Of a stretch of DNA of 64,000 nt, positions 10,673-55,550 are shown piece by piece. Position 1 is the stretch's first letter. Each line of letters begins with the position of its first letter. The stretch is taken from positions 4,192,279 through 4,256,278 of the forward strand of contig CP124756.1 in NCBI GenBank assembly GCA_029972225.1. The letters are read 5' to 3'. Source of the stretch: Candidatus Thiothrix putei. GTDB taxonomy: Bacteria; Pseudomonadota; Gammaproteobacteria; Thiotrichales; Thiotrichaceae. The notes under the pieces are model-generated. The model did not search any database and was not told the DNA's origin. It saw only the letters and a list, made by a program, of their open reading frames with translations. The translations under genes were made by a program, and so were the position numbers.

Positions 10673-12291
10673 GTACAACATTAGAACTGGTATCGGTGCA
10701 ATACGCCTTGGCGTTACTTGTCGGGCAAAGTCTGGATTTGCGCACGATGTTGCACCAGTTTCTGCCGCCTGCCTTGAAACTGTTGAATTGCCGCAGTGGT
10801 TATCTGTGGCTACGGCGTTGTGAGTCATTTGACACGATTGCAGGCATTGAGCCTTGCTACAGTTACCCCAAGCTGAAAATACCCTTGGTGGATAAGTCCG
10901 CCACATTAGCAGCAGCGATTCAGGCATTGGCGGATAATGCGTGGTTGTTGGCAGAGCCGTTGGATATTGTTGAAACGGATGGCAGTTATTGCCACGTGTT
11001 ACCTATTGGGCAAAGCGGTTTGCTGGTTTTGCGGCGAGACCCGCCCTTATTAGCGGCACAATTGCAGGCACTGACGCCGGTATTAATGCGTTTGGAAACC
11101 GCGTGTCTGGCGTGTGTGCAACACGCCAATTTGGAGGCAGCGCGTCAGGAAGCCGAACGCGCGAATCAGGCAAAAAACGCATTTCTGGCAATGATCAGCC
11201 ATGAAATCCGTACCCCCATGAACAGTGTGATGGGGCTAACCGATTTGCTGGGATACAGCGAACTCACACCTGCACAACGTGAATACGTGAAATTGATTCG
11301 GGAATCTTCGGGTGCGTTGCTGGGCATTATCAACGAAATTTTGGATTTTTCGCGGATCGAATCCGGGGCAACGCGGTTAAACAATGCGCCATTCAGGGTG
11401 CAAGCGCTGTTGGAAACGGCATTAGCACCGTTGGCAGTCGCGGCGCGTGATAAGGCTATCGCTTTTCACTGGCGCATTGCGGCTGATGTGCCGGAAACCT
11501 TGCAAGGTGATGCTGGGCGCTTACGGCAAGTGTTGATCAATCTGGTGGGCAATGCGCTCAAATTTACGAACAGTGGCGGTGAGATTGCGATTGAAATCAC
11601 TGCCGAACCACACGCTCCAACGGGCAGTACGCGGGTAAGGTTTAGTGTGCGTGATACCGGGATTGGGATTGCATCCGAACAGCTTGAGACTATTTTTCAG
11701 CCGTTTCAGCAGGTGGATAGTCGGATTTCACGGCGTTACGGTGGCACGGGTTTGGGGCTGACCATTGCCGCGCAATTGGTGGCGATGATGGGTGGGAAAT
11801 TGCAGGTGGAAAGCCAGCTTGCACAGGGCAGTACCTTTCATTTCACCTTATTGCTGCCAACGGATGTGACACCCGCGCCTGCAACACCCGTTGGCGATGT
11901 TTTAAGCATGGCACAACGCCCGCTGACAATTTTGTTGGCAGAAGACAATGAAATCAATGGCATGTTCACGCGCTTGCTGCTCAATAAAATCGGGCATCAG
12001 GTGACGGTCGTGGTAAACGGGCGTGAAGCGCTGGAAAGCTGGCAACAGCAACGCCCGGATGTGATCTTGATGGACATGCAAATGCCGGTGATGGATGGCA
12101 TGGAAGCCACCTTGCTGATTCGCGCTCAAGAACAAATAACCGGCACTCACACGCCGATTATTGCCCTGACAGCGAATGTATTGGCAAGCGACCGCGAGCG
12201 TTGTTTGCAAGCCGGTATGGATGATTTTCTCAGTAAGCCATTCGAGTTACCGGCATTGCTTGATGTGCTGGCACGGGCAACCGCCCGTTAA
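10669..12291 (+). CDS. Cytoplasmic hybrid sensor histidine kinase with receiver domain
   Basis: The 540-residue protein has an N-terminal region of about 150 residues resembling a degenerate GAF-like sensor without membrane segments. A short coiled coil leads to the HisKA domain with MISHEIRTPMN (phospho-acceptor His178). An HATPase domain follows (N box LINLVGNALKFT, G boxes DTGIGI and YGGTGLGL). A C-terminal receiver has the acidic pair AEDN, phospho-acceptor Asp469 in LMDMQMPVMDG and the late Lys in SKPF. It overlaps the FIST gene by four bases and is probably controlled by it. No output protein is adjacent, so phosphate may pass to an HPt protein elsewhere. Confidence 0.92.
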   Translation: MSTTLELVSVQYALALLVGQSLDLRTMLHQFLPPALKLLNCRSGYLWLRRCESFDTIAGIEPCYSYPKLKIPLVDKSATLAAAIQALADNAWLLAEPLDIVETDGSYCHVLPIGQSGLLVLRRDPPLLAAQLQALTPVLMRLETACLACVQHANLEAARQEAERANQAKNAFLAMISHEIRTPMNSVMGLTDLLGYSELTPAQREYVKLIRESSGALLGIINEILDFSRIESGATRLNNAPFRVQALLETALAPLAVAARDKAIAFHWRIAADVPETLQGDAGRLRQVLINLVGNALKFTNSGGEIAIEITAEPHAPTGSTRVRFSVRDTGIGIASEQLETIFQPFQQVDSRISRRYGGTGLGLTIAAQLVAMMGGKLQVESQLAQGSTFHFTLLLPTDVTPAPATPVGDVLSMAQRPLTILLAEDNEINGMFTRLLLNKIGHQVTVVVNGREALESWQQQRPDVILMDMQMPVMDGMEATLLIRAQEQITGTHTPIIALTANVLASDRERCLQAGMDDFLSKPFELPALLDVLARATAR

Positions 12292-12372
12292 AATATCACT
12301 GAATGTTGGTCATTCCCCGTGCACTATGATGGGGCGTATAATGGGTCAGTACGTAGCCATGTGAGAACAACC

Positions 12373-38050: not shown

Positions 38051-39270
38051 CAGGGCAATCGCTTGAAAGTTTGGTTGCAAAACATGCATAAATAAGGTTT
38101 TCCCGAAAGGACAAAACCGATGCCGAACTTGCCGTCCAGCGCTATCAGCCGCCTACTGGAACAGTTGTCAGTTTTAGAAGACCCACGCCAGCAAGCCAAA
38201 GTTCTCTACCCCCTACCTGAAATCCTATTGCTGGGTTTGGCAGGCAGCTTAGCAGGGGCAGACGATGTGGTGGAAATGGTGCGCTGGGCAAAGCTAAACG
38301 CGGATTTCCTGCGCCGCTATTATCCCTATGCACGGGGCTTTCCCAGCCATGACACGGTGAGTGACGTGTTCAACGCGCTGAATGCTAAGCTGTTTTCGGA
38401 ACTGTTTATCCGTTGGACAAACAGCCTGTCCGCAGGGGAGGCTGACCTATTGAACATTGACGGCAAAACCTCACGGCGCAGTGGTGGCAACGGGCAGAAC
38501 CCTCTGCACCTGGTGTCAGCGTGGGCAAACCAGCAAAATCTAGTGCTGGGGCAGGAAGCCACCGACCAGAAATCCAATGAAATCACTGCCATCCCCGCCT
38601 TGCTACGCAAGCTCGACATTGAAGGCTGCTTGATCACCATTGATGCGATGGGGACACAAAAGGCCATCGCCAAGCAAATCGTGGAAGCAGGCGGTGATTA
38701 CCTACTGGCAGTCAAAGACAATCAGAAAACGTTAGCAGAAGACATCGCCCTGTTTTTCGAAAAGCCGCCTGCCGGTTATGTGCTGGATGAAGACACCCAG
38801 GTGGAAAAAGACCACGGGCGGCTCGAAACCCGCCGTTGCCGCATTTGCACCGATGTTGCTTGGTTGGAACAACGGCAGGAATGGGCAGGACTTGCCAGCA
38901 TCATCTGTATCGAGTCCTGGGTCGAAAAAGCAGGAAAATCCACCTATTCCATCCGCCACTACATCTGTTCACTGGCGATGATCGCCAAGGCCGCACAATA
39001 TGCCGTCCGCTCCCACTGGGCAATCGAAAACAAGTTGCATTGGGTGCTGGATGTCCTGATGCGGGAAGATTTGGCGAGAAACCGTAGCAACCATGGCGCA
39101 CATAATCTCGCCATCCTGCGCCACATGGGTACTAACCTGCTGCGCAATGACAAAACCAACAAACATAGCCTCAAAGTCCGTCGTAAACAGGCAGGGTGGT
39201 CAACTGACTATCTGGCACAACTGCTGGAGCAAGTCATGTAAGTAAGGCGATTATTCAAGCGATTGCCCTG
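38051..39270 (+). mobile_element. ISAs1-family insertion sequence, copy A
   Basis: The left end CAGGGCAATCGCTTGAA (38051-) is the reverse complement of the right end (TTCAAGCGATTGCCCTG, to 39270), giving a 17-base perfect inverted repeat and a 1220-base element with one transposase gene. Copy B follows directly with no spacer. Confidence 0.92.
38120..39241 (+). CDS. ISAs1-family transposase, copy A
   Basis: The 373-residue protein has the N-terminal H-repeat-like region PEILLLGLAGSLAGADDVVEMVRWAKLN. The DDE domain has LNIDGKTSRRS (Asp), ITIDAMGTQKAIAKQIVEAGGDYLLAVKDNQ (Asp) and HWAIENKLHWVLDVLMREDLARNRS (Glu). This is the typical ISAs1 (ISAs1/YhhI H-repeat) transposase at its normal length. 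It looks fully functional and is identical to copy B. Confidence 0.93.
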   Translation: MPNLPSSAISRLLEQLSVLEDPRQQAKVLYPLPEILLLGLAGSLAGADDVVEMVRWAKLNADFLRRYYPYARGFPSHDTVSDVFNALNAKLFSELFIRWTNSLSAGEADLLNIDGKTSRRSGGNGQNPLHLVSAWANQQNLVLGQEATDQKSNEITAIPALLRKLDIEGCLITIDAMGTQKAIAKQIVEAGGDYLLAVKDNQKTLAEDIALFFEKPPAGYVLDEDTQVEKDHGRLETRRCRICTDVAWLEQRQEWAGLASIICIESWVEKAGKSTYSIRHYICSLAMIAKAAQYAVRSHWAIENKLHWVLDVLMREDLARNRSNHGAHNLAILRHMGTNLLRNDKTNKHSLKVRRKQAGWSTDYLAQLLEQVM

Positions 39271-40480
39271 CTTGAAAGTTTGGTTGCAAAACATGCATAA
39301 ATAAGGTTTTTCCCGAAAGGACAAAACCGATGCCGAACTTGCCGTCCAGCGCTATCAGCCGCCTACTGGAACAGTTGTCAGTTTTAGAAGACCCACGCCA
39401 GCAAGCCAAAGTTCTCTACCCCCTACCTGAAATCCTATTGCTGGGTTTGGCAGGCAGCTTAGCAGGGGCAGACGATGTGGTGGAAATGGTGCGCTGGGCA
39501 AAGCTAAACGCGGATTTCCTGCGCCGCTATTATCCCTATGCACGGGGCTTTCCCAGCCATGACACGGTGAGTGACGTGTTCAACGCGCTGAATGCTAAGC
39601 TGTTTTCGGAACTGTTTATCCGTTGGACAAACAGCCTGTCCGCAGGGGAGGCTGACCTATTGAACATTGACGGCAAAACCTCACGGCGCAGTGGTGGCAA
39701 CGGGCAGAACCCTCTGCACCTGGTGTCAGCGTGGGCAAACCAGCAAAATCTAGTGCTGGGGCAGGAAGCCACCGACCAGAAATCCAATGAAATCACTGCC
39801 ATCCCCGCCTTGCTACGCAAGCTCGACATTGAAGGCTGCTTGATCACCATTGATGCGATGGGGACACAAAAGGCCATCGCCAAGCAAATCGTGGAAGCAG
39901 GCGGTGATTACCTACTGGCAGTCAAAGACAATCAGAAAACGTTAGCAGAAGACATCGCCCTGTTTTTCGAAAAGCCGCCTGCCGGTTATGTGCTGGATGA
40001 AGACACCCAGGTGGAAAAAGACCACGGGCGGCTCGAAACCCGCCGTTGCCGCATTTGCACCGATGTTGCTTGGTTGGAACAACGGCAGGAATGGGCAGGA
40101 CTTGCCAGCATCATCTGTATCGAGTCCTGGGTCGAAAAAGCAGGAAAATCCACCTATTCCATCCGCCACTACATCTGTTCACTGGCGATGATCGCCAAGG
40201 CCGCACAATATGCCGTCCGCTCCCACTGGGCAATCGAAAACAAGTTGCATTGGGTGCTGGATGTCCTGATGCGGGAAGATTTGGCGAGAAACCGTAGCAA
40301 CCATGGCGCACATAATCTCGCCATCCTGCGCCACATGGGTACTAACCTGCTGCGCAATGACAAAACCAACAAACATAGCCTCAAAGTCCGTCGTAAACAG
40401 GCAGGGTGGTCAACTGACTATCTGGCACAACTGCTGGAGCAAGTCATGTAAGTAAGGCGATTATTCAAGCGATTGCCCTG
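39271..40480 (+). mobile_element. ISAs1-family insertion sequence, copy B, lacking first 11 bases
   Basis: This copy begins at CTTGAAAGTTTGG directly after the right end of copy A, so it has lost the outer CAGGGCAATCG of its left end. It also has one extra T in the leader (GGTTTTTCCC). The right end is whole (to 40480). No target duplication is seen between the outer flanks of the dimer. Confidence 0.9.
39330..40451 (+). CDS. ISAs1-family transposase, copy B
   Basis: The 373-residue product is identical to the one at 38120-39241, with the same DDE residues. Its leader differs by one inserted T upstream of the ribosome binding site (GAAAGGA). Because the left end of this copy is incomplete, it may move only as part of the dimer or using the left end of copy A. 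Confidence 0.93.
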   Translation: MPNLPSSAISRLLEQLSVLEDPRQQAKVLYPLPEILLLGLAGSLAGADDVVEMVRWAKLNADFLRRYYPYARGFPSHDTVSDVFNALNAKLFSELFIRWTNSLSAGEADLLNIDGKTSRRSGGNGQNPLHLVSAWANQQNLVLGQEATDQKSNEITAIPALLRKLDIEGCLITIDAMGTQKAIAKQIVEAGGDYLLAVKDNQKTLAEDIALFFEKPPAGYVLDEDTQVEKDHGRLETRRCRICTDVAWLEQRQEWAGLASIICIESWVEKAGKSTYSIRHYICSLAMIAKAAQYAVRSHWAIENKLHWVLDVLMREDLARNRSNHGAHNLAILRHMGTNLLRNDKTNKHSLKVRRKQAGWSTDYLAQLLEQVM

Positions 40481-41249: not shown

Positions 41250-43316
41250 ATGGCCATTAAAAAATCCGCGCTCTATTCCTCCCTGTGGGCTTCGTGCGAT
41301 GAATTGCGCGGTGGCATGGACGCCAGCCAATACAAGGATTACGTGCTGTTCATGCTGTTCATCAAATACATCTCGGATAAATACGCGGATTCGGATGATT
41401 TTGCCCCACCCGTGACCATTCCAGCGGGGGCAAGTTTTGCGGACATGATCCAGCTCAAGGGCAAAAGCGATATTGGCGACAAGATCAATAAGCAGATTAT
41501 CCAGCCCTTGGTGGCTAGCAATGCCCGTCTTGCCCGCAGTGACTTTCCCGACTTTGATGACCCCAACAAGCTGGGCGAAGGGGCGGCGAAAGTGGAACGC
41601 CTCACTAACCTGATCAGCATTTTCCAAAAGCCCGAACTCGATTTTTCCAAAAACCGCGCCGATCACGATGACATTCTTGGCGATGCGTATGAATACAATC
41701 CGCCGTTTTCTGACAAAACGTGGAGTACCGGGCTGAACCCCAGCAACGACCCTTACCAACGCTTTGCCTGGGGCGAACCACCCGCCAAACAAGGCGATTA
41801 CGCTTACCTGTTGCACATCATCCGCTCGATGAAACCCAACGGCAAAGCCGCGTGCATCCTCCCGCATGGCGTGCTGTTCCGGGGCAATGCCGAAAGCGTT
41901 ATCCGCCAGCAACTGGTGCGTTCCGGCTATTTGAAAGGCATTATCGGGCTACCCGCCAACCTGTTTTATGGCACGGGCATCCCCGCCTGCATTCTGGTAC
42001 TCGACAAGGCAAACGCCACCGCCCGCAAAGGCATTTTCATGATCGACGCGGCGAAAGGCTTCATCAAGGACGGCGATAAAAACCGCCTGCGCGAACAAGA
42101 CATCCACCGCATCGTTGACACCTTTACCAAGCAAACCGACACGCCCTGTTATGCCCGCATGGTGGCGTTTGACGAAATCAGCGACCCGAAAAACGCTTAC
42201 AACCTCAACCTGCCGCGCTACATCGACAGCACCGAGCCGGAAGATACCCAAGACATCACTGCCCACCTGTGCGGCGGCATTCCTGATCCAGACATCCACG
42301 CCATGACTGCCTATTGGCACGTGCTGCCGACCCTGCGGGCGGCCTTGTTCACCTCCACGGGGCAAGCAGGTTATGCCCAACTGACCTTGCCGATTGCACA
42401 AGTCAAACCCTTCATCTTGAACCATGCCGAATTCACCGCCTTCAAAACCACGGTGACACGCAGTTTTGACGCATGGCGGACAGACAACACCCCGCACTTG
42501 CAAGCCTTTGGCAAAGACGCACACCCCAAAGCCCTGATCGACACCCTCGCCGAAGCGTTGTTGAATGCGTTTAAAGCCGCGCCCTTGCTGGATGCTTACG
42601 ACGTGTACCAACACCTGATGGATTACTGGGCGGAAACCATGCAGGACGATGCCTACCTGATTGCTGCCGATGGCTGGGTAGCCACCCCGCAACGCATTAT
42701 CGACACCGACAAAAAAGGCAAAACCAAAGACAAAGGCTGGGCGTGTGACCTCATCCCCAAAGCGTACATCGTGGCGCGTTACTTTGCCGCGCAACAAGCC
42801 GCACTGGAAGCCTTGCAAACCCAACTGGAAAGCGTCACCGCGAACTTAAGCGAGTTGGAAGAAGAACACAGCGGCGAAGATGCCGCGTTTTCCGGCTTCG
42901 AGAAAATCAACGCCGCCGCCATCAAAGACCGCCTCAAAGAATTAAAAGCCGAACAAGGCGACTGGAAAGTGGCGGAAGAAGCCGTGCTGAACCAATGGCT
43001 AAAATTGAGCGGACAAGAAGCCACCCTGAAAAAATCCATCAAGGAAGCCGATGCCGCACTGGATAAACTCGCCTATGAGAAATACCCCGAACTGAGCGTG
43101 ACGGAAATCCAGACCTTGGTGATTGATGACAAATGGATGGCAGCCCTGACCATCACCGTGCAAGGCGAACTCGATCGCGTCTCGCAAACCCTCACCACCC
43201 GCATCCGCGAACTCGCCGAACGCTACGCCACGCCGTTACCGCAACTGGTGGAAGAGGTCGCCCCCCTCTCTGCCCGTGTTGACGAACACCTCAAGCGCAT
43301 GGGATTTCAACTATGA
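41250..43316 (+). CDS. hsdM: Type I restriction-modification methyltransferase subunit with internal deletion
   Basis: The 688-residue protein has the HsdM N-terminal helical domain (SLWASCDELRGGMDASQYKDYVLFMLFIKYISDKYA) and methylase motif IV NPPFSDKTW at residues 150-153. Normally about 130-140 residues lie between GDAYEY and NPPF, including QFYTP and the SAM-binding DPxCGSGS motif I. Here they are directly joined (junction at 41696/41697), in frame. The C-terminal half, with a long coiled coil (about 520-640), is complete. Without motif I, methylation is very unlikely. AGAGA precedes the start. The stop overlaps the TPR-like gene (ATGA). Confidence 0.9.
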   Translation: MAIKKSALYSSLWASCDELRGGMDASQYKDYVLFMLFIKYISDKYADSDDFAPPVTIPAGASFADMIQLKGKSDIGDKINKQIIQPLVASNARLARSDFPDFDDPNKLGEGAAKVERLTNLISIFQKPELDFSKNRADHDDILGDAYEYNPPFSDKTWSTGLNPSNDPYQRFAWGEPPAKQGDYAYLLHIIRSMKPNGKAACILPHGVLFRGNAESVIRQQLVRSGYLKGIIGLPANLFYGTGIPACILVLDKANATARKGIFMIDAAKGFIKDGDKNRLREQDIHRIVDTFTKQTDTPCYARMVAFDEISDPKNAYNLNLPRYIDSTEPEDTQDITAHLCGGIPDPDIHAMTAYWHVLPTLRAALFTSTGQAGYAQLTLPIAQVKPFILNHAEFTAFKTTVTRSFDAWRTDNTPHLQAFGKDAHPKALIDTLAEALLNAFKAAPLLDAYDVYQHLMDYWAETMQDDAYLIAADGWVATPQRIIDTDKKGKTKDKGWACDLIPKAYIVARYFAAQQAALEALQTQLESVTANLSELEEEHSGEDAAFSGFEKINAAAIKDRLKELKAEQGDWKVAEEAVLNQWLKLSGQEATLKKSIKEADAALDKLAYEKYPELSVTEIQTLVIDDKWMAALTITVQGELDRVSQTLTTRIRELAERYATPLPQLVEEVAPLSARVDEHLKRMGFQL

Positions 43317-44437
43317 AAGACACAAACATGAAAAATTTTTCCGCACAACTGTTGCAGGCAGCAAAAGCTAACCCCGCGATACTCCTTGAAATGGTCAACG
43401 GGTCGGCAGTCATTGCCTCCCTCAGGCAGCGGGGTATCAAACCACTCAAAGACTTTGATTACACCGATGAAACTATCCGTGCCGACAACATGGATCAACT
43501 CTCTGCTGAAGAATACGACACACATGATCGCATTTATGCCCTGATTAACACGCCGTCGTCTTCCACAGATAAATTGGAACATGCATTGGCAACCCTGTAC
43601 GCACTGCGCGACAAATATCCAGACGTGCCGTCCCTCTACAATTTCACTGCCGTTACCCTGGCGCGTTTGGGCCGAAAAGAAGAAACCCATGCCGCCCTGC
43701 TGGAAACACACCAGCGTTTTCCCGATTACCTTTTTGGCAAAATCAGTCTGGCTGAACATTACCTGCGCCAAGGACAACCCGAAAAAGTCCCGGACATACT
43801 GAACCATCAGTTCGATCTGACACAGCACTTTCCTCCCGACGTTGACCTGTTCCACATCTCGGAAGCCATTGGATTTTACAGCATTGTGGGGATGTATCAC
43901 GCTGCCACCGGGGATGCAGCGCAAGCGCTGGTCTGTTATTCCATCGTCCGCAACCTGAACCCCGACCATGCTGGCGCACAGGCACTGGCAAGATACATTT
44001 TAGTGACTGACCTTGACCCAGCCATCAAACATCAGAACCATCTTGCGGATTTCGTGGGAAACGATGAAACCCCATCACCCGGCCTACTGGTTGACGATGC
44101 CGAAGAAGCTACTAACCTCACAGCAGCCATGCAGGCATACCTGCCCATCGTTATGACCCCGACCAAAAACCTTGTGCATTACCACAACCCCAACATGAAA
44201 AAGATTAAGCCCAATGAAAAACTGAAAGTGACCGAGGTCAGCTATGTGGGCGATGAAGGCGGGATCGCTTGCCACATACAACGTGCCAAGGTTGAAGAAC
44301 TCCTAGTGGTTTCGCTGACCCATCTCATGCCGGACAAGAAGCACCCGCTATACAAAGCCATTAGGCACTACCAATTACGCAGGATCAAATCCCTGGCAAA
44401 CCAGCAGACACACCGTACCGGCGGCAGGGGCGAATAA
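43313..44437 (+). CDS. TPR-like protein inside the type I RM operon
   Basis: The 374-residue protein is not recognised as a named family. Residues about 85-235 form helical pairs of TPR type (ALATLYALRDKYPDVPSLYNFTAVTLARLGRKEETHAALLETHQRFPDYLFGKISLAEHYLRQGQPEK). A following segment (YLPIVMTPTKNLVHYHNPNMKKIKPNEKLKVTEVSYVGDEGGIACHI) looks like a separate beta domain, and the tail is basic. The start overlaps the hsdM stop and the gene is followed by hsdS, so it is made together with the methylase. A chaperone or regulatory partner role is only inference. Confidence 0.7.
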   Translation: MKDTNMKNFSAQLLQAAKANPAILLEMVNGSAVIASLRQRGIKPLKDFDYTDETIRADNMDQLSAEEYDTHDRIYALINTPSSSTDKLEHALATLYALRDKYPDVPSLYNFTAVTLARLGRKEETHAALLETHQRFPDYLFGKISLAEHYLRQGQPEKVPDILNHQFDLTQHFPPDVDLFHISEAIGFYSIVGMYHAATGDAAQALVCYSIVRNLNPDHAGAQALARYILVTDLDPAIKHQNHLADFVGNDETPSPGLLVDDAEEATNLTAAMQAYLPIVMTPTKNLVHYHNPNMKKIKPNEKLKVTEVSYVGDEGGIACHIQRAKVEELLVVSLTHLMPDKKHPLYKAIRHYQLRRIKSLANQQTHRTGGRGE

Positions 44438-44497: not shown

Positions 44498-45531
44498 AGA
44501 AGTGGCGGAACATCACGACGGGTGAGAAACCATGAATACGGCAATACAACCGGGCTACAAACAAACCGAAGTCGGCGTAATCCCCGAAGATTGGCATACC
44601 GTTCCGCTTGGTCAAGTTGTGACATTTCAACGTGGGTATGATTTACCGCATCGGCTTAGAAAAAATGGAGATGTTCCACTAGTTAGTTCTGCTGGTGTAA
44701 CTGACCGACATTGCACTGCAATGGCTCAACCACCGGGTGTCGTAACTGGTCGATACGGCACAATTGGTGAGATATTTTTTATTAACGAACCATTTTGGCC
44801 ATTAAACACAACACTTTACGTTCGAGATTTTCATGGTAATGACGAGCGATTCATTTACTACCTATTGAAACCGTTTGATTTCGCCTCTTTTAGTGGAAAA
44901 AGTGGTGTGCCCGGCGTTAATCGCAATGATTTACACGCTGAAATGGTATCTCTTCCTATAAATATAACTGAACAAACCGCCATCGCCTCCGCCCTCTCCG
45001 ACATGGATGCCCTGCTGGACGGTCTTGACCGCCTCATCACCAAAAAGCGCAACCTCAAACAAGCCGCCATGCAGCAGCTTCTCACGGGCAAAACTCGATT
45101 AGCGGGATTTGAGGGGGAGTGGGAGGTGAGGCGGTTGGGGGACTTGCTGACTATCTGTCATGGGAAAAGCCAGAAAGATGTTGAAACTATTGATGGTGCT
45201 TACCCAATACTAGCCACTGGTGGGCAAATAGGTACAGCTTCTCGCGCTCTTTATGATCAGCCATCGGTACTAATTGGACGTAAAGGCACAATTAATCAGC
45301 CTCAATATATGGATACGCCATTTTGGACGGTAGACACTCTTTTCTATTCGATTTTGAAGAATAATAGACATTATCTATAAATAATTTTTATCGAAAAGTT
45401 TTTAAAACTTTCAATAGATTGGATTTCGCATGGAGTTTCTCAGGTTGTGTAGTCCGCAAGCAATTTCCATAATCTGATCATCAAAGTCATCTTTTAAATT
45501 ACGAGCCACTTGCAAAATTACATTTTCAGCG

Positions 45532-46884
45532 TGAACCTTCCTTCATCTGAAGGAAAAAAGAAGTGTGGGCTGCCGTTTTCGGCGATAATAGAAGCGTCAA
45601 AACAACCATTAAGCCCACGCTATGAATTCTACCGAACGCGCCCTGATTGCACAACGCTGGAGTTTGCTGCAAATTGAAATACTACCTTGCTTCAATGATG
45701 CCTTTGGCACATTGACCCCCAAGCTTGAAAAACTCATTCACGTACTGGAGCTGACGCGCATTGAAGATTTTGTGCGCTCTTTTCGTGATGGGTCTGGACG
45801 GCCAGCGACGGAGCGATCTTGGTTTGCCAATGCTTTTGTCGCCAAAAGCGTGCTCAATATTGTCAATACGCGAGCACTCATTGACCGGCTGCAAAACGAT
45901 CGCTCCCTGCGACGCATCTGCGGGTTTCCCCTGACCAAGAAACTGCCTTCCGAATCCACCTTTTCACGTGCCTTCGCTGAATTTGCTGAACAGCGTTTAG
46001 CGGAACGTGTGCATGAAACGTTGGTGAAAACGTATTTGGGCGATGCGCTGATCGGCCACCTGTGTCGGGATTCAACAGCCATTGAGGCACGTGAACGGCC
46101 TGTTGCCGAGGAAAAGCCAAAGAAAAAACAAGGGCAAACACGGATTCAGCGCCAACGGGAACAGTCACTTCAGCAAGCACTCGATGAGATACCGGTTCAG
46201 TGTAACCGGGGGACGAAGAAGAATGCCCAAGGCTACAAGCACAGTTGGAACGGCTACAAACTGCATATCGATACCGCCGATTGTGGTGTCCCGATAGCAG
46301 CCATTCTGTCTTCCGCCTCCTTTCACGACAGCGGGGCAGCCATCCCACTCTCTCAAATCAGTGCCCAACGTGTCACCAGTCTCTACGACCTGATGGATGC
46401 AGCCTATTGCAGTGCTGATTTGCACGAATACAGCCGTCATCTGGGGCATGTCCCTCTGATTGATCACAATCCTCGCGGCGGACAGAAAGAAGCGTTTGAA
46501 CCTGCTGATGCCGAGCGTTACAAAATTCGCAGCACCGTAGAACGAACCAATGCCCGCCTGAAGGATGAATTTGGTGGTCGGAATGTGTGGGTGCAAGGCG
46601 CACAAAAAGTTTACAGCCACCTGATGTTTGGGATTTTGGTGTTGAGTGCTGATCAACTGATGCGTGTCTTGTTATAAGGCGACTGGTTTTGAAAAAACAC
46701 GGGAAGACTGACTGAAAAACAGGAGCAGTCGCATTGGTATGGGTGAAATTTAGCAAAAGTTACGGTAAAACTGAAAAAGCTCAGGTTTCGTTGGTCAAAT
46801 TGAGTAAAAAATCGGCTGAATATGCGGCGTTCGGTCAATGCTGAAAATTGAGCAACTCAGTTTGTCGGATTTTGCAAGTCGCTC
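45532..46884 (+). mobile_element. DDE insertion sequence (type C), copy 2, complete
   Basis: The right border is fixed by comparison with the copy at 21248. The left border is inferred from restoring the ISL2-like transposase frame (CGT AAC GCT). No clear terminal inverted repeat and no target duplication could be seen, which is unusual. The element is about 1353 bases. Confidence 0.8.
45622..46677 (+). CDS. IS5/IS1182-like DDE transposase (type C), complete
   Basis: The 351-residue protein starts MNSTERALIAQRWSLLQIEILPCF. It has a DUF772-like N-terminal part (DGSGRPATERSWFANAFVAKSVLNI), first Asp in CRDSTAIEAR, a basic insertion KPKKKQGQTRIQRQREQSLQQ, second Asp in DLMDAAYCSADLH and Glu in STVERTNARLKDEFGGR. 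All catalytic positions are present, and it is probably the active source of the truncated copy at 21.5 kb. Confidence 0.88.
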   Translation: MNSTERALIAQRWSLLQIEILPCFNDAFGTLTPKLEKLIHVLELTRIEDFVRSFRDGSGRPATERSWFANAFVAKSVLNIVNTRALIDRLQNDRSLRRICGFPLTKKLPSESTFSRAFAEFAEQRLAERVHETLVKTYLGDALIGHLCRDSTAIEARERPVAEEKPKKKQGQTRIQRQREQSLQQALDEIPVQCNRGTKKNAQGYKHSWNGYKLHIDTADCGVPIAAILSSASFHDSGAAIPLSQISAQRVTSLYDLMDAAYCSADLHEYSRHLGHVPLIDHNPRGGQKEAFEPADAERYKIRSTVERTNARLKDEFGGRNVWVQGAQKVYSHLMFGILVLSADQLMRVLL

Positions 46885-48086
46885 TTACGGTACACATCTT
46901 TCAGGCATCGGCAGCGTTTAATACCACTGATGATATGTTCAACGACTACCCTGCGGGCAGAAATTTGACGGTTTTCTTCTTTTTCTTGTGGGGTCAGACA
47001 TTTATTCCGTGGCTTCTTTTTTGGCTCAATGACGGTGACACCTTTTCCCATGTCAGCCCCCTTGAAGCCTAAATCACGTAAAATCACAGAACCCTCCGGT
47101 AATTGGGTCTGCTCCTCATCGGCAATTTTCTTGTCATGCTTCTTGCCTGAGTGAGTATCCCCTAAGTATTTGATATGTCTGTCAGCACAGCCAACGATGA
47201 CATTGTTTTTAACCGTATGGGCTTTTTTTTACCACTATAGTATTCACGCTGAACATCATTATCCACAGGGCGCTGGATTCTCCGCTCTGTTCCGTCAATA
47301 ATCAATTCCTGTTGCCCTTCTTCTGCTAGCCGTTCCATTAATTCTGAGGATAGTCGAATGGGCTTATGTCCCATGTTATCCAATGCACTTTGTAATACGG
47401 GACACAAGCGGTGTATCCAGTGGTTTGCCACACTTTGGGGAAGATCAAATGAATACGCCAGCACTTCTTGTAAAGGATAGGTCTTCAGGTAAAACAGAAT
47501 GAAAAACAGTTTGTCTTCTATTAATGCCAGTTTCCCATCAGAACGACCCCGCGTCTCATCAACACGTTTGCCCCGGGCGTGTAGGTCAGTTTGGTAAGCT
47601 GCACTGAACCGTTCGAGCAAACCCAAAAACTCCTTAACGTTGAGACTGGTCATGGCAACAAATGCCTTTTCATTGGATTTCAATGCGTTAAAGCTGTACT
47701 CCGCCATGCCGTTAGTCCCTACTCTAGGCTATTATTACTGTCAGGAATTTACACTCTGGCTGTGTATCTTGCCATTGATAATTATTATCTATATATTTCA
47801 GTTTTTTATAGATAATGTCTAATAATAATGCAAAGTTTCTTTACTACCGATTCTGTTTAATTGATTGGATGCAGTTCAATGAAGCATCTGGCGTTCCAAG
47901 TCTCAACGCTAGAACGATTGAAAGCATAACCATTAAAACACCATTACCTGAAGAACAAGAAGCGATTGCGGCGGTGCTTTCGGATATGGATGCGGAGATT
48001 GCGGCGTTGGAGCAGCGGCGCACGAAGACGCGGGACATTAAGCAGGGGATGATGCAGGAGTTGCTGACGGGGAGGACGCGGCTGGT

Positions 48087-48674
48087 ATGAGTACCTATCA
48101 ACCCCCTTTCAGCCTCAACCACGCCATGCTATCCAAAGTCGCAGACATCGCCGAATTGCTAGGGCAATGGAAACAAGCCAGCCGCGCAGGGCTTGTCCCA
48201 CAACTGCGCCGTGGCAACCGCATCCGCACCATCCAAGCCTCGCTAGCCATCGAACAAAACACCCTCATCCTGAGCCACTGGCAGCCGATGCTGGCGTATT
48301 TGCCCGTTGAAACCGTCATCAAAAGTCGCCAAGAAACCTATTACCGCGTCTTGGGTGAAGCGGATGCCGCCGCCGATTGCAGTGGTTTCATCCTGTTTAT
48401 GCTGGATGCCCTCGCGGAAGCCCTCAACCAAGCCATTGAAAGCCAACGGCACACCACCACTTCGGTAGAAAATGCGGTAAAAACTTCGGTAAAAACGCCC
48501 GAAGCCCTGCTACTATTGCTACGCCAGCACCCCACGTTAACCCTCAGCGAAGCAGCAAACCACCTCGGTCTTTCGGTACGTGCCATTGAAATGGCGAGTG
48601 CCAAACTGGTCAAAGCGGGAAAACTGCAACATATCGGCTCGAAAAAAGGCGGTCATTGGGAGGTCACACCATGA
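48087..48674 (+). CDS. Fic-family protein lacking the catalytic Fic core
   Basis: The 195-residue protein overlaps hsdS by four bases. Its first 60 residues match a Fic N-terminal region, including [20 protein letters not shown] with the self-inhibitory S-x-x-x-E helix. It then jumps, at about residue 60, to the region after the Fic motif ([49 protein letters not shown]). The HPFxxGNGR motif for AMP transfer is absent. The C-terminal winged helix ([35 protein letters not shown]) is intact. The deletion is in frame, so a protein may be made that can regulate but not AMPylate. Confidence 0.82.
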
Positions 48675-51115
48675 GTTCAATCCGCACTGAACGCACGACC
48701 CAAAACCGCGTCGCCAAACGCTTCACTGACCCATCACACCCTGAATGGCTCGGTTATCGCCACCTCGGCAACTGGCAATATCGCGCCAATAACCGTCCGA
48801 TTGAACCGGTGTTATTGCAGGAAAACCTGAAACAACGCGGCTATTCAGATGCCCACATCAACGCCGCTCTCCACAAGCTGGAAATCGCCGCCGACACCAC
48901 CGGCATTACCCTTTACCAAGCCAACCTCGCCACCTACCAACTGCTGCGCTACGGTGTCGCGGTGCAAATCGCCATCGGGCAACCCCATGAAACTGTTCAC
49001 CTGATCGACTGGGACAACCCCAGTAACAACGATTTCGCCCTCGCCGAAGAAGTCACCCTCAAAGGCGGTGCGGAACGTCGCCCCGACATCGTGCTCTACC
49101 TCAACGGTATCGCGGTTGCAATCATTGAACTCAAGCGCACCTCGGTGGACATCGCCGAAGCCGTCAACCAACTCGTCACCAACCAACAAGCACAATTCAA
49201 CCAAGGCTTTTTCAGCACCGTGCAACTGGTGTTGGCAGGCAACGACGTACAAGGTTTGCGTTATGGCACGGTCGGCACACCCGAAACCTTTTTCGTGCAA
49301 TGGTTTCAATCCACGCCCCTAGGGGCGAATTTGGAAGAAGTTACGTCTCTCCCAAATTCAGTGTATCCCCCTGAAAGGGGAGGTTTCAACCAAAAGATTT
49401 CTGATGAAACCGGCGGGCAAGCCGATGGCAATCTCAACACAGGCGACTTACTCGATATTCCACTCGCACAACTGTGCCACCCGACGCGCTTGCTCGACAT
49501 TATCCAGCATTTCGTAATCTTTGACGGCGGGCAAAAGAAAGTGCCGCGCCCGCACCAGTTTTTCGGCATTAAAGCGGCGCAAGAGCGCATCCGCCAACGC
49601 ATCGGCGGCTACATCTGGCACACCCAAGGCAGTGGCAAAAGCATCCTCATGGTATTACTCGCCAAATGGTTGCTGGAATATGACCCCGCCGCCCGTATCC
49701 TCATCATCACCGACCGCGACGAGTTGGATAAACAGATTGTCAATGTGATGCGCAATGCAGGCGTGATCGGGACAAATGCCCCGTCGCCACGCATTACCTC
49801 ACGCGCCGAATTCGTGGAAAAACTCACCGCCAGTACCCCGCGCTTACTATGTGCGCTGATCCACAAATTCGAGCCAGACCTCAAGGGCGAACCGCCACGG
49901 GTGCATGGGCGTTTTTACGTATTCGTGGATGAATGCCACCGCACCCAAGGTGGCGACATGAACAAACAGATGAAAGAGCGTTGGCTAAAAGACGCCATTT
50001 TCATCGGTTTTACCGGTACGCCATTATTGCGGCGTGAAAAGAAAACCACCGATGCGGTGTTCGGCGCACCGATTCATTGCTACAAGTTCCACCAAGGGGT
50101 TGCCGACAAGGTAGTGCTAGACCTCAAATACGAAGCGCGGAAAGTGCCGCAACGCCTCACTTCACAGAAAAAAATCGACGCATGGTTTGACCAAAACACC
50201 CAAAACCTCAATAACTTCCAGAAAGCGGTACTGCGTAAACGCTGGGCAAACATGGAAGCCTTAATGAGTGCAGGCGAACGCAAACAACGCATTATTGCCA
50301 GCATTATCGAAGATTTCGGTCTAAAGCCCCGCTTGAACAATGATCGTGGCACGGCGTTGTTAGTTGCCGCGTCGATTTACGATGCTTGCCATTATTTCCG
50401 CTTGTTCCAAAACACCAACTTCGGCTCGTATTGCGGCATTATCACCTCTTACGCACCGTTGGAGAGTGCGATTTCCAAAGAGTCGCTGAAAAGCGACGAA
50501 CGTTACAAATACGACACCTACAAGCAGTATGTGCTGAAAGATTTCCCCACCACCGAGAAATACGAAACCGAACTCAAACGCCGTTTTATCGAAGAGCCTG
50601 CCAATTGCAAGCTGCTGATTGTGGTGAGCAAATTGCTCACGGGCTTTGATGCGCCATCCTGCACTTATATCTATCTGGACAATGAGCTGCGCGACCACAA
50701 CCTGTTCCAAGCTATTTGCCGCACCAACCGGCTGGACGGTGACGATAAGCCGTTCGGTTATGTGGTTGATTTCAAAGAGCTGTTTGGCGATGTGCAACAA
50801 GCGATAGCGGTTTACAGTTCCGACGAATTAGAGCCGGATGAAAACGGCACGGATGGCAATAATGTCCAGCTTGATGGTTGGCTGAAAGCAGGCAAAACCG
50901 CGCTGGATACGGCATGGCAAGCCTTGCATTACCTGTGCGACCCCGTATTGCCCCCGCGTGAAACCGAGCAATACATCCGCTACTTCTGCGGCAATGCCAA
51001 CGACCCGAATGCTTTGCTGGAAACCGAAGCCTTGCGCATTCCGTTCTACAAAGCTGTGGCAACCTTTGTGCGGGCGTTCGCTGCCATTTCCCAAGATTTG
51101 GCAGAAGCGGGTTAA
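48671..51115 (+). CDS. hsdR: Type I restriction enzyme R subunit, C-terminally truncated and with a repeat insert
   Basis: From ATG 48671 ([14 protein letters not shown]) the protein has 814 residues; the frame also opens at 48656. The nuclease core has [21 protein letters not shown]. Helicase motifs follow: [11 protein letters not shown] (I), [12 protein letters not shown] (II), IGFTGTPLL (III) and [33 protein letters not shown] (V-VI). It ends at DLAEAG, where relatives continue for 150-200 residues that bind the methylase core. An extra stretch near residues 214-240 is encoded by palindromic DNA (49312-49392). The stop is followed by IS-rich sequence. Restriction activity is improbable. 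Confidence 0.9.
49312..49392 (+). repeat. Palindromic in-frame insert within hsdR
   Basis: CGCCCCT/AGGGGCG (49314-49327) and CCCC-TGAAA-GGGG (49367-49380) lie in a short stretch that interrupts the usual PETFFVQW...[10 protein letters not shown] spacing of HsdR. The arms resemble the GTAGGGGCG repeats found elsewhere in the window. It keeps the frame. Confidence 0.55.
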
Positions 51116-51118
51116 TAA

Positions 51119-51181
51119 CAGTTAGTATAAAAGTTGTACCTAATTATCCAAATATCATCAAAATGGGTAACTTTGTCGTTA
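51119..51181. other. Short unassigned gap between hsdR remnant and IS4-family element
   Basis: These 63 A+T-rich bases lie between the truncated hsdR and the IS terminus. No gene, repeat or terminator is seen; the sequence does not continue HsdR in any frame. Confidence 0.5.
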
Positions 51182-52801
51182 CTCAACAGTCGTGACATTC
51201 CCCCAAAACCAAGCATGATGTTAGGCAGCAGCCTTACTGAACTGCTGTTTTAACACCTTGATTATGGGTATTTTCCCGCTGTTAGCGGTTCATGTTTGCC
51301 TATCATCGTCCTCATCGCCGTTGACGGCCGCGTTAATTCGCCACCAGAAGGCTTTGGGGGGAGAGCGCAGTAATTGCCGTGCCAGTAGTGGTGCTAAAAT
51401 CTGTCGCACGGTGTTCTCGGAAGGCAATTCACGGGAACGGGTGCGCAAATACAAGACCTGCTGCTTCCAAAGCCCCTCATGGTACTTGAGGGAAAACAGT
51501 TGTAGCAAACCGGTGGCGATGCAGGCACACAACACAAAGGTTTCCATTGCCTGCCAGCAGGCCACCACCGTGGGGAGGTGCTGTGCTTGGGGGGCTTTGA
51601 GATGCCGATTGGCGGTAGGTCGCCGGGAATGGCGCGGCAGGTAACGGCTCCAGAAGTGGAAGCGGAATGCGCCCATGGTATTTTTCAGGGCATCAAACAA
51701 GGTTTCAATCCGGGTGCGTCGGCAGTACAGGGTGAGGATGGTTTCCGCGTCCAGCACCAAATCCGAACACATCAGCAGGATGGGGCCACGGGAAGTGACT
51801 GCCCAGACAAATTGCAGCGGCTGCCCTAACGGTTTCCACCACAGGGTATGGGACATCAGGCGTACCGACTCCTCCTTGCCATAAATGCACAGGGTCACTT
51901 CACGGAAAAAATCAGCATGGTCAAAGGCTTCCCACAACACCAGCTTCATCCCGTACTGGCGTTGCCGCCCACGCCTTCCCGGCGGTTTGGGTGGCGCAGG
52001 GAAGTAGGCCACGTAGTTCTTTTTAGCGCGGGTGATGACCTGCACCAGTGGTTGTTGTAACGCCACCGACCAAACCGAGCGTGCCAGCCGGAACACCGAA
52101 GCCGTGGCAAAGAACGCATCCAGCACCAGCCACACCGGGCGGTCATTCACCTGCGCAAACGACAACGCCATCTGCACCACCCGTGTCCCCAGTTTGAGTG
52201 TCGGGTCGTTAGCATCCTCTTCCCCCAAATGCCGAAACCCCTGATGGATTTGCAAACTCAGCGGCAGGCAGAAACAGGCGGACAGGCTCCCCACCAACAA
52301 CCCCACGGCTCCCCAACACTGCCCCCGGAAATAGTCCGGTTTGCTTTGGGTTTCCGAGGTTTCCCGCAAGGAAACGACCCCCGGCATCCGCCCACCATCC
52401 TTAACCACATGGGTATGGTCGCCCAGCACCACCAAACGCCCCGCCACCTCAACCAGCGGCGCATGGGACAACACCCACCGCTGCCAGCTCGCCCGTAACC
52501 GCTCAGGATGGTAAGACCCGGCACGAAAAAAATGGAGCAACCGATGGTAGCCCCGTTCATCCGATAACCAGTAACGGCACATCGACGTGACCCCGCTCAT
52601 CTCGGTCGCCGCTAAAAAGCTCAGGATGATGGCGCAAAACAATAGCCATGCTCGCTGGCGCGAAAATTCACTTTTAAAGTGGTGAAGGCTCTGGTATAGA
52701 TCAACTAGCATGATGTCCCTTGGATAATAGGTCGCTGGTAACGCCTACTCTAAGGGATTTCGTGCTGCTTGGGGGAATGGGGAGAACTTATGACTGTTGA
52801 G
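51182..52801 (-). mobile_element. IS4-family insertion sequence (about 1.62 kb)
   Basis: CTCAACAGTC (51182-51191) is reversed at the other end (GACTGTTGAG, 52792-52801), and imperfect similarity continues inward (GGGGGAATG near both ends). A decayed piece of the same element lies at 24583-24684. No target duplication was found, so the flanks may have been rearranged. Confidence 0.82.
51290..52711 (-). CDS. IS4-family transposase
   Basis: The 473-residue protein carries the first Asp in VVLGDHTHVVKDG, the second in WLVLDAFFATASVF, and the IS4 signature Y-x2-R-x3-E-x6-K in YCRRTRIETLFDALK. The N-terminal region is long and helical and the C-terminal part (METFVLCACIATGLLQLFSL) hydrophobic. The frame is complete, so the gene may be active. 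Confidence 0.88.
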   Translation of the reverse strand: MLVDLYQSLHHFKSEFSRQRAWLLFCAIILSFLAATEMSGVTSMCRYWLSDERGYHRLLHFFRAGSYHPERLRASWQRWVLSHAPLVEVAGRLVVLGDHTHVVKDGGRMPGVVSLRETSETQSKPDYFRGQCWGAVGLLVGSLSACFCLPLSLQIHQGFRHLGEEDANDPTLKLGTRVVQMALSFAQVNDRPVWLVLDAFFATASVFRLARSVWSVALQQPLVQVITRAKKNYVAYFPAPPKPPGRRGRQRQYGMKLVLWEAFDHADFFREVTLCIYGKEESVRLMSHTLWWKPLGQPLQFVWAVTSRGPILLMCSDLVLDAETILTLYCRRTRIETLFDALKNTMGAFRFHFWSRYLPRHSRRPTANRHLKAPQAQHLPTVVACWQAMETFVLCACIATGLLQLFSLKYHEGLWKQQVLYLRTRSRELPSENTVRQILAPLLARQLLRSPPKAFWWRINAAVNGDEDDDRQT

Positions 52802-52820
52802 AAACAGTTGAGGGGTTGTA

Positions 52821-53948
52821 TACTTTGCCCGTGAATAGCTGTTGAATAATGAGAAGCCCTCAAGCAAAGTACGGCTGTTATTGGCAACCGGTCGTCCTTT
52901 CCATGATCCAGATAGACTTCAGCGAATCCGATCAAACCGCCTTGAATGAGGGGCGTTACCGCCATGCCCACCCTCGCGTCCGCCAACGGATGGAAGTGTT
53001 GTGGCTAAAAAGCCAGGGAATGGCGCATGGGGACATTGAACGGCTGGCACAGGTGAGTTCAACGACGGTCACCCGTTATTTGAAACGTTACCAACAAGGT
53101 GGGATCGCTGCCTTGGAACAACTGGATTTCCGTCGCCCAACCCGCCGGTTGGAACCTTTCCGTGAGCCCCTGAAGAAACATTTTGAGAAGCATCCACCGA
53201 CCCGGATCAGTCAGGCGATCGCTGATATACAGCGCTTAACCGGCCTTGAACTCAAGCGGGAAGCCGTGCGGCTATTCCTGCATGACTTGGGTTTGTCCGT
53301 CAGGAAGGTGGGGATGATACCGGCGAAAGCCGACCCTGCTGCCCAGGAGACTTTTAAAAAAAGAGCTGGAGCCGCGTCTTGAGGAGGCCAAGGCCGGAAA
53401 ACGCGCCGTTTTCTTTGTCGACGCCGCCCATTTTGTCCTGGCCCCGTTTCTGGGGTTCCTGTGGTGTTTCACCCGGCTGTTCATCCGCGCCCCTGCCGGA
53501 CGCCAGCGCTACAATGTCCTCGGTGCGTTGAATGCAGTCACCCATGAACTGGTCACCGTGACCAATGACAGTTACATCAACTCCCAAAGTGTTTGTCAGT
53601 TGCTTCGGCAAATCAAGGCATTGGCCCTGGATGTCCCGGTGACCTTGGTGATGGACAATGCCCGTTACCAGCGCTGTAGCCTGGTACAAACATTCGCCCA
53701 AACACTCGGGATCGAACTGTTGTTCCTACCCGCTTATTCCCCCAACCTGAACCTGATTGAGCGCCTCTGGAAGTTTGTGAAGAAGGAATGCCTGTATTCA
53801 CGTTACCATGAAAACTTTACCGCGTTTGCGCAGGCCATTGATGCCTGTTTGGCACAAACCCACACTACGCATAAAAAAGCCTTGGACTCCTTGCTGACTC
53901 TCAACTTTCAGACCTTTGAGGAATCTGCAATTATGGGCGGTTGAAGTA
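52821..53948 (+). mobile_element. IS630-family element, type B, copy 1 (1128 bp)
   Basis: The ends TACTTTGCCC and GTTGAAGTA are flanked by TA on both sides (52819-52820, 53949-53950). An identical-length copy in the same orientation lies at 61754-62881; comparison of the flanks sets the borders. On its right it cuts a tnpB gene. Confidence 0.92.
52849..53944 (+). CDS. IS630-family transposase (type B), two frames
   Basis: The first frame (52849-53382) has helix-turn-helix GMAHGDIERLAQVSSTTVTRYLKRY and the winged region up to QETFKK. The catalytic half is in the +1 frame, VFFVDAAHFVLAPFLGFLW (Asp), LVMDNARYQRC (Asp), PAYSPNLNLIERLWKFVKKEC (Glu), ending at 53944. The switch is at a run of seven A (53356-53362); slippage to six A would join the frames as KKELEPRLEEAKAGKR. 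The start is probably ATG 52903 (MIQIDF) or 52849. Copy 2 has the same break. Confidence 0.82.
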
Positions 53949-53950
53949 TA

Positions 53951-54356
53951 ACCCAAGGTTGGGAATGCAGATGCGGCAACCGTCAAGGCTGAACTGGTCG
54001 TTGGTGAGGGTGAAACTGTCGCGGCTTTTGCCTTTCTTTTTGAATTGCGGGTACTTGGCTCGCCCCGCAAAGAAGTTCTTGAAAGCTGCACCGAGTTGGA
54101 TAATCGCCATTTGCGGGGCGTTTTTGGTGACTTCCAGCATCCAGGGGAATTGTTCGCGTTTGATGGCGTTCAATTGGCGGCGCAAGCCCATTTGGTTGGG
54201 TTTTGGCTGGGTGTTATCGTCTTTCCATGCGGCGTATTGGGTTTGCCATTCTGCCAACGCCCAGTTGTAGGCGAACCGTGCTGTACCAGCGGCTTTCGCC
54301 AAGTACGTCGCTTGCTTATGGTTGGGGTCAAGGCGGATTTTGTGGCTGATGATCAT
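53951..54356 (-). pseudogene. IS200/IS605-family TnpB, N-terminal fragment
   Basis: From ATG 54356, MIISHKIRLDPNHKQATYLAKAAGTARFAYNWALAEWQ is the helix-turn-helix start of TnpB (IS605 OrfB). It runs to RAKYPQFKKKGKSRDSFTLTNDQF and LDGCRICIPNLGLY, where the IS630-B element cuts in. The RuvC-like and zinc-finger parts are missing and not found on the other side of the IS, so this is a dead remnant of an RNA-guided nuclease ancestor gene. Confidence 0.88.
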
Positions 54357-54414
54357 GGCAAACAGAATGCAGCACGGTGTGATAGTTGTCTAGTCATCCG
54401 TGCTTTTGCTGCTA

Positions 54415-55550
54415 TACCTTACAGCGTCAAGACCTGAACATTTTTAAAGGTTTGAAAATTTGTTGTCATCAACTGGGTCAGTTCTTTCTTGTGATCGGTA
54501 TCCAGCTTGTCGAGACAGTTGGTGATGGCCGCCTTGAAAGCGGGAAACTTATCATAGTATTTCGAGTACAAGCATTTTTTCTTGACGAACTTCCACAACC
54601 GTTCAATCAGATTGAGGTTGGGTGAATAGGTCGGTAAAAATAATAGTTCAATATTGAGCCTTTTCGCACAGGCAAACACGGCTTCACAGCGTTGATACTT
54701 GGCATTATCCAAGACCAAAGTGATCGGTATTTTGAGTGCTAACGCTGCAATTTTTTCCAATAATTCACACACGCTGTTAGCGTTGATATAGGAGTCGTTA
54801 GTGATCGTGATGAGTTGTAGCGTTATCGCATTGAGTGCGCCCAATACGTTGTAGCGTTGTCGACCACAGGGGGCTTTGATGAATACGCGGGAAAATGACC
54901 ACAAAAACCCCAGAAACGGTGCTAACACGAAGTGGGCGGCATCGACAAAAAAAGGGCGCGTTTGCCCTCCTTAGCCTCCTGAATGCGCGGTTTTAGTTCA
55001 TTTTCCAGGAACTTTTCTTGTGCTTCCACATCAGCTTTGGCGGGTATCATCCCCACTTTATGGATGTCCATCCCTATTTTCTTCATAAAGACACGTACCC
55101 TGTCCTCACTGCGTTTGATGCCTGTCAGCTCCTCAATCTTAGCGGCTGCCGCCTTGCTGGTTGCGGGGGGATATTCACGAAAATAGGCTTCAATCTTGTC
55201 TTTATATGCCATCAAATCACTCTGTGGTTTATTGAATCGTATTTCTTTAAGAGCTTCTAAACCGTTAGGTTGTAGGTAGGCGTTTAGGTAGGCAAGCAGC
55301 GTGGCTTCTGTAATCCTTTCCAATCGTTTGATTTCCTTATGCGTCAACTGTTGGGATTTCAGGTACAGCACGGACATTTTCTTACGGACTCTGGGATGAG
55401 GATGGCGCTCCTTCCAGTAGAACAGCTCCGCTATCTCATCCTCAGTGAAAGTGATTTTTAATGTCATACATTACTCATGGCTGCTTTTGTTACCAGTCAT
55501 CTAACCATATTTCCCTGATCAAAAAAACTATTTTATGGCACGGACTGGTA
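54415..55550 (-). mobile_element. IS630-family element, type A, copy 2 (1136 bp)
   Basis: This is an inverted copy of 18553-19688, with TA on both sides (54413-54414, 55551-55552). The two copies form a pair of inverted repeats about 35 kb apart. Confidence 0.92.
54419..55467 (-). CDS. IS630-family transposase (type A), copy 2, two frames
   Basis: The same two frames (55467-54922 and 54928-54419) as in copy 1 are joined by a -1 slip on the seven-base T run of the coding strand (heptamer T TTT TTG). The helix-turn-helix and the DDE residues match copy 1. Conservation of the break in both copies argues that it is the working form. Confidence 0.85.

What the first reader, a model, noticed from the sequence alone, without database searches (positions are those of the whole stretch)
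41250..43316. HsdM with its SAM-binding core cleanly removed in frame
GDAYEY joins directly to NPPFSDKTW at 41696/41697, removing about 130-140 residues with motif I. The rest of the protein, including the coiled coil for HsdS, is intact. The frame is kept, so a full-length but SAM-blind subunit would be made. It may be non-functional or act as a DNA-binding scaffold.
Basis: partly seen in the sequence, partly recalled or inferred. Interest (0 to 1): 0.6.

Follow-up and report, generated by a model that had tools for sequence, protein, structure and literature searches.

The report
Decaying type I restriction-modification operon
A bacterial DNA-methylating gene has lost exactly 119 codons, including the pocket that holds its methyl donor, but the two partner genes beside it are also broken, so this is an ordinary dead defence operon rather than a new kind of protein.

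Summary
Against the near-identical full-length hsdM of a congeneric genome (808 aa), the window gene (688 aa) lacks exactly 357 bp, or 119 codons (not 130-140). The join is at 41696/41697 with 1 bp of microhomology and no direct repeats.

The lost piece carries the GQFYTP stretch, motif I (DPTCGSG), GQE and the DYVVA strand. NPPF (motif IV) and the long C-terminal region remain. Of 80 homologous loci elsewhere, 78 keep the segment; one is cut by a contig end and one is itself a wreck.

The scaffold reading fails on context. hsdS is cut by an insertion sequence (IS; 5-bp target duplication) that contains a second IS. hsdR has lost its last ~257 codons beside another IS and carries a 99-bp in-frame insert. 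The lost pieces were not found elsewhere in the genome.

Predicted structures agree: the full-length relative matches solved HsdM (TM 0.78 on the target), the deleted protein does not (0.38). NCBIfam's hsdM model is passed by the relative (264 bits) and failed by the window protein (145; cut-off 243).

Verdict: a recently decayed type I R-M operon, low interest.

The parts
41250..43316 (+). hsdM with a 119-codon in-frame internal deletion (688 aa; full-length relatives 808 and 819 aa)
   Evidence: TIGR00497 below cut-off
41696..41697 (+). deletion junction; 357 bp missing relative to L111:6328-6684, 1-bp microhomology (C)
44532..45366 (+). 5' part of hsdS (the open frame runs on to 45380 inside the IS)
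   Evidence: Methylase_S in Pfam; 44970-45366 is 97% identical to L111 hsdS
45367..47819 (.). IS insertion in hsdS, 5-bp target duplication TAATA (45362-45366 / 47820-47824), 15-bp terminal inverted repeats GACATTATCTATAAA; holds a second IS at 45503-46884
   Evidence: transposase domains
45503..46884 (+). inner IS (1382 bp), more than 35 near-identical copies in the genome
47820..48090 (+). 3' part of hsdS, cut off from its start
   Evidence: 98% identical to L111 hsdS; Methylase_S
48656..51115 (+). hsdR lacking its last ~257 codons (819 aa including a 33-residue insert; L111 relative 1037 aa)
49304..49402 (+). 99-bp in-frame insert in hsdR: a structured dispersed repeat
51179..52803 (-). IS next to the hsdR truncation, about 11 other near-identical copies

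Best explanation
This is the remains of a type I restriction-modification operon (hsdM-hsdS-hsdR) that has recently lost function in this genome. hsdM suffered one illegitimate 357-bp deletion that happens to be a multiple of three (one chance in three), removing strands 1-4 of the methyltransferase fold with the SAM site. hsdS was split by an IS that was later hit by a second IS. hsdR lost its 3' end at an IS junction. If the 688-aa protein is made, it most likely cannot bind SAM, folds poorly and has no intact HsdS to bind. The frame is still open because the loss is recent, not because it is being kept. Shown: the deletion and its borders, the disruption of both partner genes, and the absence of close copies of the lost hsdM segment elsewhere in the genome. 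Inferred: loss of activity, poor folding, recency.
For: The gap is 357 bp against three full-length relatives. The deleted 119 residues hold DPTCGSG and GQFYTP, and motif I forms the SAM site in gamma-class methyltransferases while NPP(Y/F/W) is catalytic (PMC3874165). 78 of 80 homologous loci keep the whole segment. hsdS is split by a nested IS and hsdR is truncated beside an IS; the missing HsdR end is not found in the genome. The best own-genome match to the deleted hsdM piece is 41% identical, in a different full-length HsdM. The AlphaFold2 model of the full-length relative matches PDB 7vru_A at TM 0.78 (target length), the deleted protein at 0.38; pTM falls from 0.78 to 0.58 and pLDDT around the join is below 50. 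TIGR00497 hsdM: window 144.8 bits, below the 242.75 cut-off; relative 264.4, above it. The one other homologue missing motif I (L045) lies in a locus with no hsdS and a wrecked hsdR.
Against: hsdM is otherwise open, and its changes since the split from L111 are not clearly relaxed: in the C-terminal part 18 synonymous and 11 non-synonymous on the window branch against 17 and 6 on the L111 branch (Fisher p = 0.39). Some use of the remaining protein is therefore not excluded. The other type I HsdM in the genome (513 aa) was not tested as a partner.
Confidence: 0.92

Rival explanations
1. The shortened HsdM is kept as a SAM-blind scaffold or dominant-negative subunit that still binds HsdS and DNA.
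For: The frame is kept and the N-terminal and long C-terminal regions are intact; nothing clearly shows relaxed selection.
Against: hsdS is interrupted and hsdR truncated in the same operon. No relative carries the deletion. It takes half of the central sheet, including the strand before NPPF, and the predicted fold is disrupted.
Confidence: 0.03
2. The deletion is an assembly or sequencing artefact and the living cell carries the full gene.
For: No reads could be examined here.
Against: The genome is one contig of 4.28 Mb at 100% completeness. The join is a single exact breakpoint with no repeat that would collapse in assembly. The neighbouring lesions are independent of it.
Confidence: 0.04
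3. The missing SAM-binding segment is supplied in trans or by a switching cassette elsewhere in the genome.
For: Type I loci can vary by recombination in hsdS (established knowledge); the hsdS halves of window, L111 and L112 are indeed mosaic.
Against: Own-genome search with the deleted segment finds only 41% identical stretches inside other methyltransferase genes. There are no repeats at the borders.
Confidence: 0.01

Closest known systems
Type I R-M HsdM subunit (TIGR00497, PF02384 with PF12161)
   Same: Same family by sequence: HsdM_N, N6_Mtase from NPPF onward, long C-terminal part; 95-96% identical to a full-length congeneric HsdM outside the gap
   Different: Lacks 119 residues including motif I; scores below the curated hsdM cut-off
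Decayed type I R-M systems (REBASE category 'decayed', PMC3874165)
   Same: All three subunit genes are recognisable but disrupted by deletion and IS insertion
   Different: Only the chance that the hsdM lesion is in frame
L045, decayed hsd locus in a Kiritimatiellae MAG
   Same: HsdM with a different in-frame deletion that also removes motif I, in a locus whose hsdR is wrecked and hsdS missing
   Different: Different borders and an independent event; low-coverage MAG, so assembly error is possible

Membership tests
Functional HsdM (type I methyltransferase subunit) | Motif I SAM-binding site | tested here: not met
   Absent from the window protein; present in L111 at residue 194
Functional HsdM (type I methyltransferase subunit) | Motif IV NPP(F/Y) | tested here: met
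   NPPF at residue 150
Functional HsdM (type I methyltransferase subunit) | Score above the TIGR00497 curated cut-off | tested here: not met
   144.8 against 242.75 bits; relative 264.4
Functional HsdM (type I methyltransferase subunit) | Methyltransferase fold | tested here: not met
   Predicted model TM 0.38 to 7vru_A against 0.78 for the full-length relative; a prediction, not a solved structure
Intact type I R-M system | Intact hsdS next to hsdM | tested here: not met
   Split by a nested IS
Intact type I R-M system | Intact hsdR | tested here: not met
   ~257 C-terminal residues missing
Intact type I R-M system | Methylation of a bipartite motif in the genome | not testable with these tools
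   No kinetic or nanopore data held
Decayed type I R-M operon | Recognisable but disrupted hsdM, hsdS and hsdR in one locus, intact in relatives | tested here: met
   Open, full-length hsdM, hsdS and hsdR in L111 and L112; all three disrupted in the window

The most novel reading that the evidence does not exclude
The 688-aa HsdM is expressed as a stable SAM-blind subunit that binds HsdS, or the HsdS of another type I system in the cell, and acts as a scaffold or inhibitor.
Probability: 0.03. Interest if true: 0.5.

Novelty: new member of a known kind. Interest (0 to 1): 0.12.

Why it matters
It matters mainly as a caution. An open reading frame with a domain cleanly missing can look like a purposeful variant, while comparison with relatives and a look at the partner genes shows ordinary decay. 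It also predicts that this strain lacks one type I methylation motif and one restriction barrier that its close relatives probably have.

Tried and rejected
Looked for the deleted segment elsewhere in the genome: only a 41% identical stretch in another HsdM and a weaker partial match. Looked for direct repeats at the borders: 1 bp only. Looked for the same deletion in 80 homologues: none. Tested for relaxed selection on the window branch: no significant difference. Searched papers for in-frame HsdM SAM-domain deletions kept in nature: nothing relevant among the listed titles. A regex for motif I flagged 11 loci as lacking it; tblastn showed that 10 were pattern misses with variant residues, and only L045 really lacks it. 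For the insert in hsdR, an Rfam search gave only sub-threshold CRISPR-repeat matches, so it is not called a CRISPR.

Full report
Observation. The window gene 41250-43316 encodes 688 residues. Pfam finds HsdM_N at 10-125 and N6_Mtase only from position 132 of its profile onward. Two other genomes of the same genus hold full-length versions, 808 aa (L111) and 819 aa (L112), 95% and 93% identical over the C-terminal part and 99% and 87% over the first 150 residues. A third, more distant relative (L113) also has the full gene. In all three the distance between the two matched blocks shows exactly 357 bp missing in the window, 119 codons. The removed residues, L111 150-268, contain GQFYTP, DPTCGSG (motif I), GQE and end with DYVVA directly before NPPF. 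The borders share one base and no repeat of 6 bases or more, so the event looks like illegitimate recombination. That it kept the frame has a one-in-three chance.

How unusual. Among 80 homologous loci from other bacteria and archaea, 78 hold the whole segment. L094 begins inside it at a contig start. L045 lacks part of it through a different deletion. L045 lies in a locus with no hsdS and with only fragments of hsdR, so it is itself a relic, or a misassembly in a low-coverage MAG. There is no sign of a conserved class of HsdM without motif I.

Surroundings. In L111 and L112 the operon is complete, with open hsdM, hsdS and hsdR. In the window hsdS matches L111 at 97-98% on both sides of a 2.45-kb insertion (45367-47819) flanked by a 5-bp duplication TAATA, with 15-bp inverted repeats at its ends. 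That insertion is an IS which itself holds a second IS (45503-46884) present in more than 35 near-identical copies in this genome. hsdR stops at 51115 where the relative continues for about 257 codons. An IS with about 11 other near-identical copies starts some 65 bp further on. No match to the missing HsdR end was found in the genome (that search has no positive control). hsdR also carries a 99-bp in-frame insert at 49304-49402. Three subunits, three independent lesions.

Consequence for the protein. Motif I forms the SAM site and NPP(Y/F/W) the catalytic site of gamma-class methyltransferases (PMC3874165). AlphaFold2 of the full-length relative gives pTM 0.78 and matches the closest solved HsdM chains (7vru, 7vs4, 3lkd) at TM 0.72-0.80 on the target. 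The window protein gives pTM 0.58, pLDDT below 50 at the join, and TM no higher than 0.39 to any of the listed type I HsdM chains. In the full-length model the deleted stretch holds strands 191-194, 215-220, 242-245 and 263-268 and the helices between them. A structure prediction of a deleted protein is weak evidence by itself, but it agrees with the curated family test: TIGR00497 is passed by the relative and failed by the window protein.

Selection. Between window and L111 the first 149 codons differ only at synonymous sites (dN 0). The C-terminal part has dN/dS 0.13. On the window branch 11 of 29 changes are non-synonymous, on the L111 branch 6 of 23 (Fisher p = 0.39). The data fit a recent loss and do not show either continued or relaxed constraint afterwards.

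Conclusion. The most likely account is an operon in decay, recently inactivated by deletion and IS insertion in an IS-rich genome. The scaffold idea is not strictly excluded but has nothing specific in its favour.

Side finding. The 99-bp insert in hsdR belongs to a dispersed, structured repeat: 2 copies in this genome and 8 above threshold in one genome of another genus of the family, none in 38 other family genomes. Read on the minus strand, most copies follow a TTCATC at a short, similar distance, and both ends can form hairpins. This is reminiscent of non-autonomous IS200/IS605-type elements (from memory, not tested). One end resembles a type I-C CRISPR repeat, but Rfam scores are far below threshold. 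At least one more copy lies inside a long open frame without breaking it (L154).

Noticed in passing
window 49303-49402 (inside hsdR); also G000:C1:2541765-2541841 and eight places in G017 (L152, L154, L156-L161): A ~95-bp repeat with conserved hairpins, inserted in frame in hsdR and absent from the hsdR of relatives. It is patchily distributed (2 copies here, 8 in one genome of another genus, none in 38 other family genomes), most copies lie next to GATGAA, and one end looks like a CRISPR repeat. Possibly a non-autonomous IS200/IS605-like element.
   Followed up: partly
L045:7992-10718 and 11549-12325: A Kiritimatiellae MAG has an hsdM with a different in-frame deletion that also removes motif I, no hsdS, and an hsdR fragment fused to a downstream metalloprotease-like gene.
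   Followed up: partly
window 38120-39241 and 39330-40451: Two transposase genes with identical proteins (373 aa, DDE_Tnp_1 with DDE_Tnp_1_assoc) stand head to tail just upstream of the operon.
   Followed up: no
window 43313-44437: A 374-aa open frame with weak TPR-like similarity sits between hsdM and hsdS, where the relatives have nothing (L111) or a different gene (L112).
   Followed up: partly
window 44532-44970 against L111 and L112: The first target-recognition half of hsdS differs between the three genomes while the second half is 97% identical, suggesting exchange of recognition domains.
   Followed up: no
window 51179-54928: A stretch of several adjacent IS elements, including a truncated TnpB gene (53931-54356), follows the broken hsdR; several of these IS types have many near-identical copies in the genome.
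   Followed up: partly
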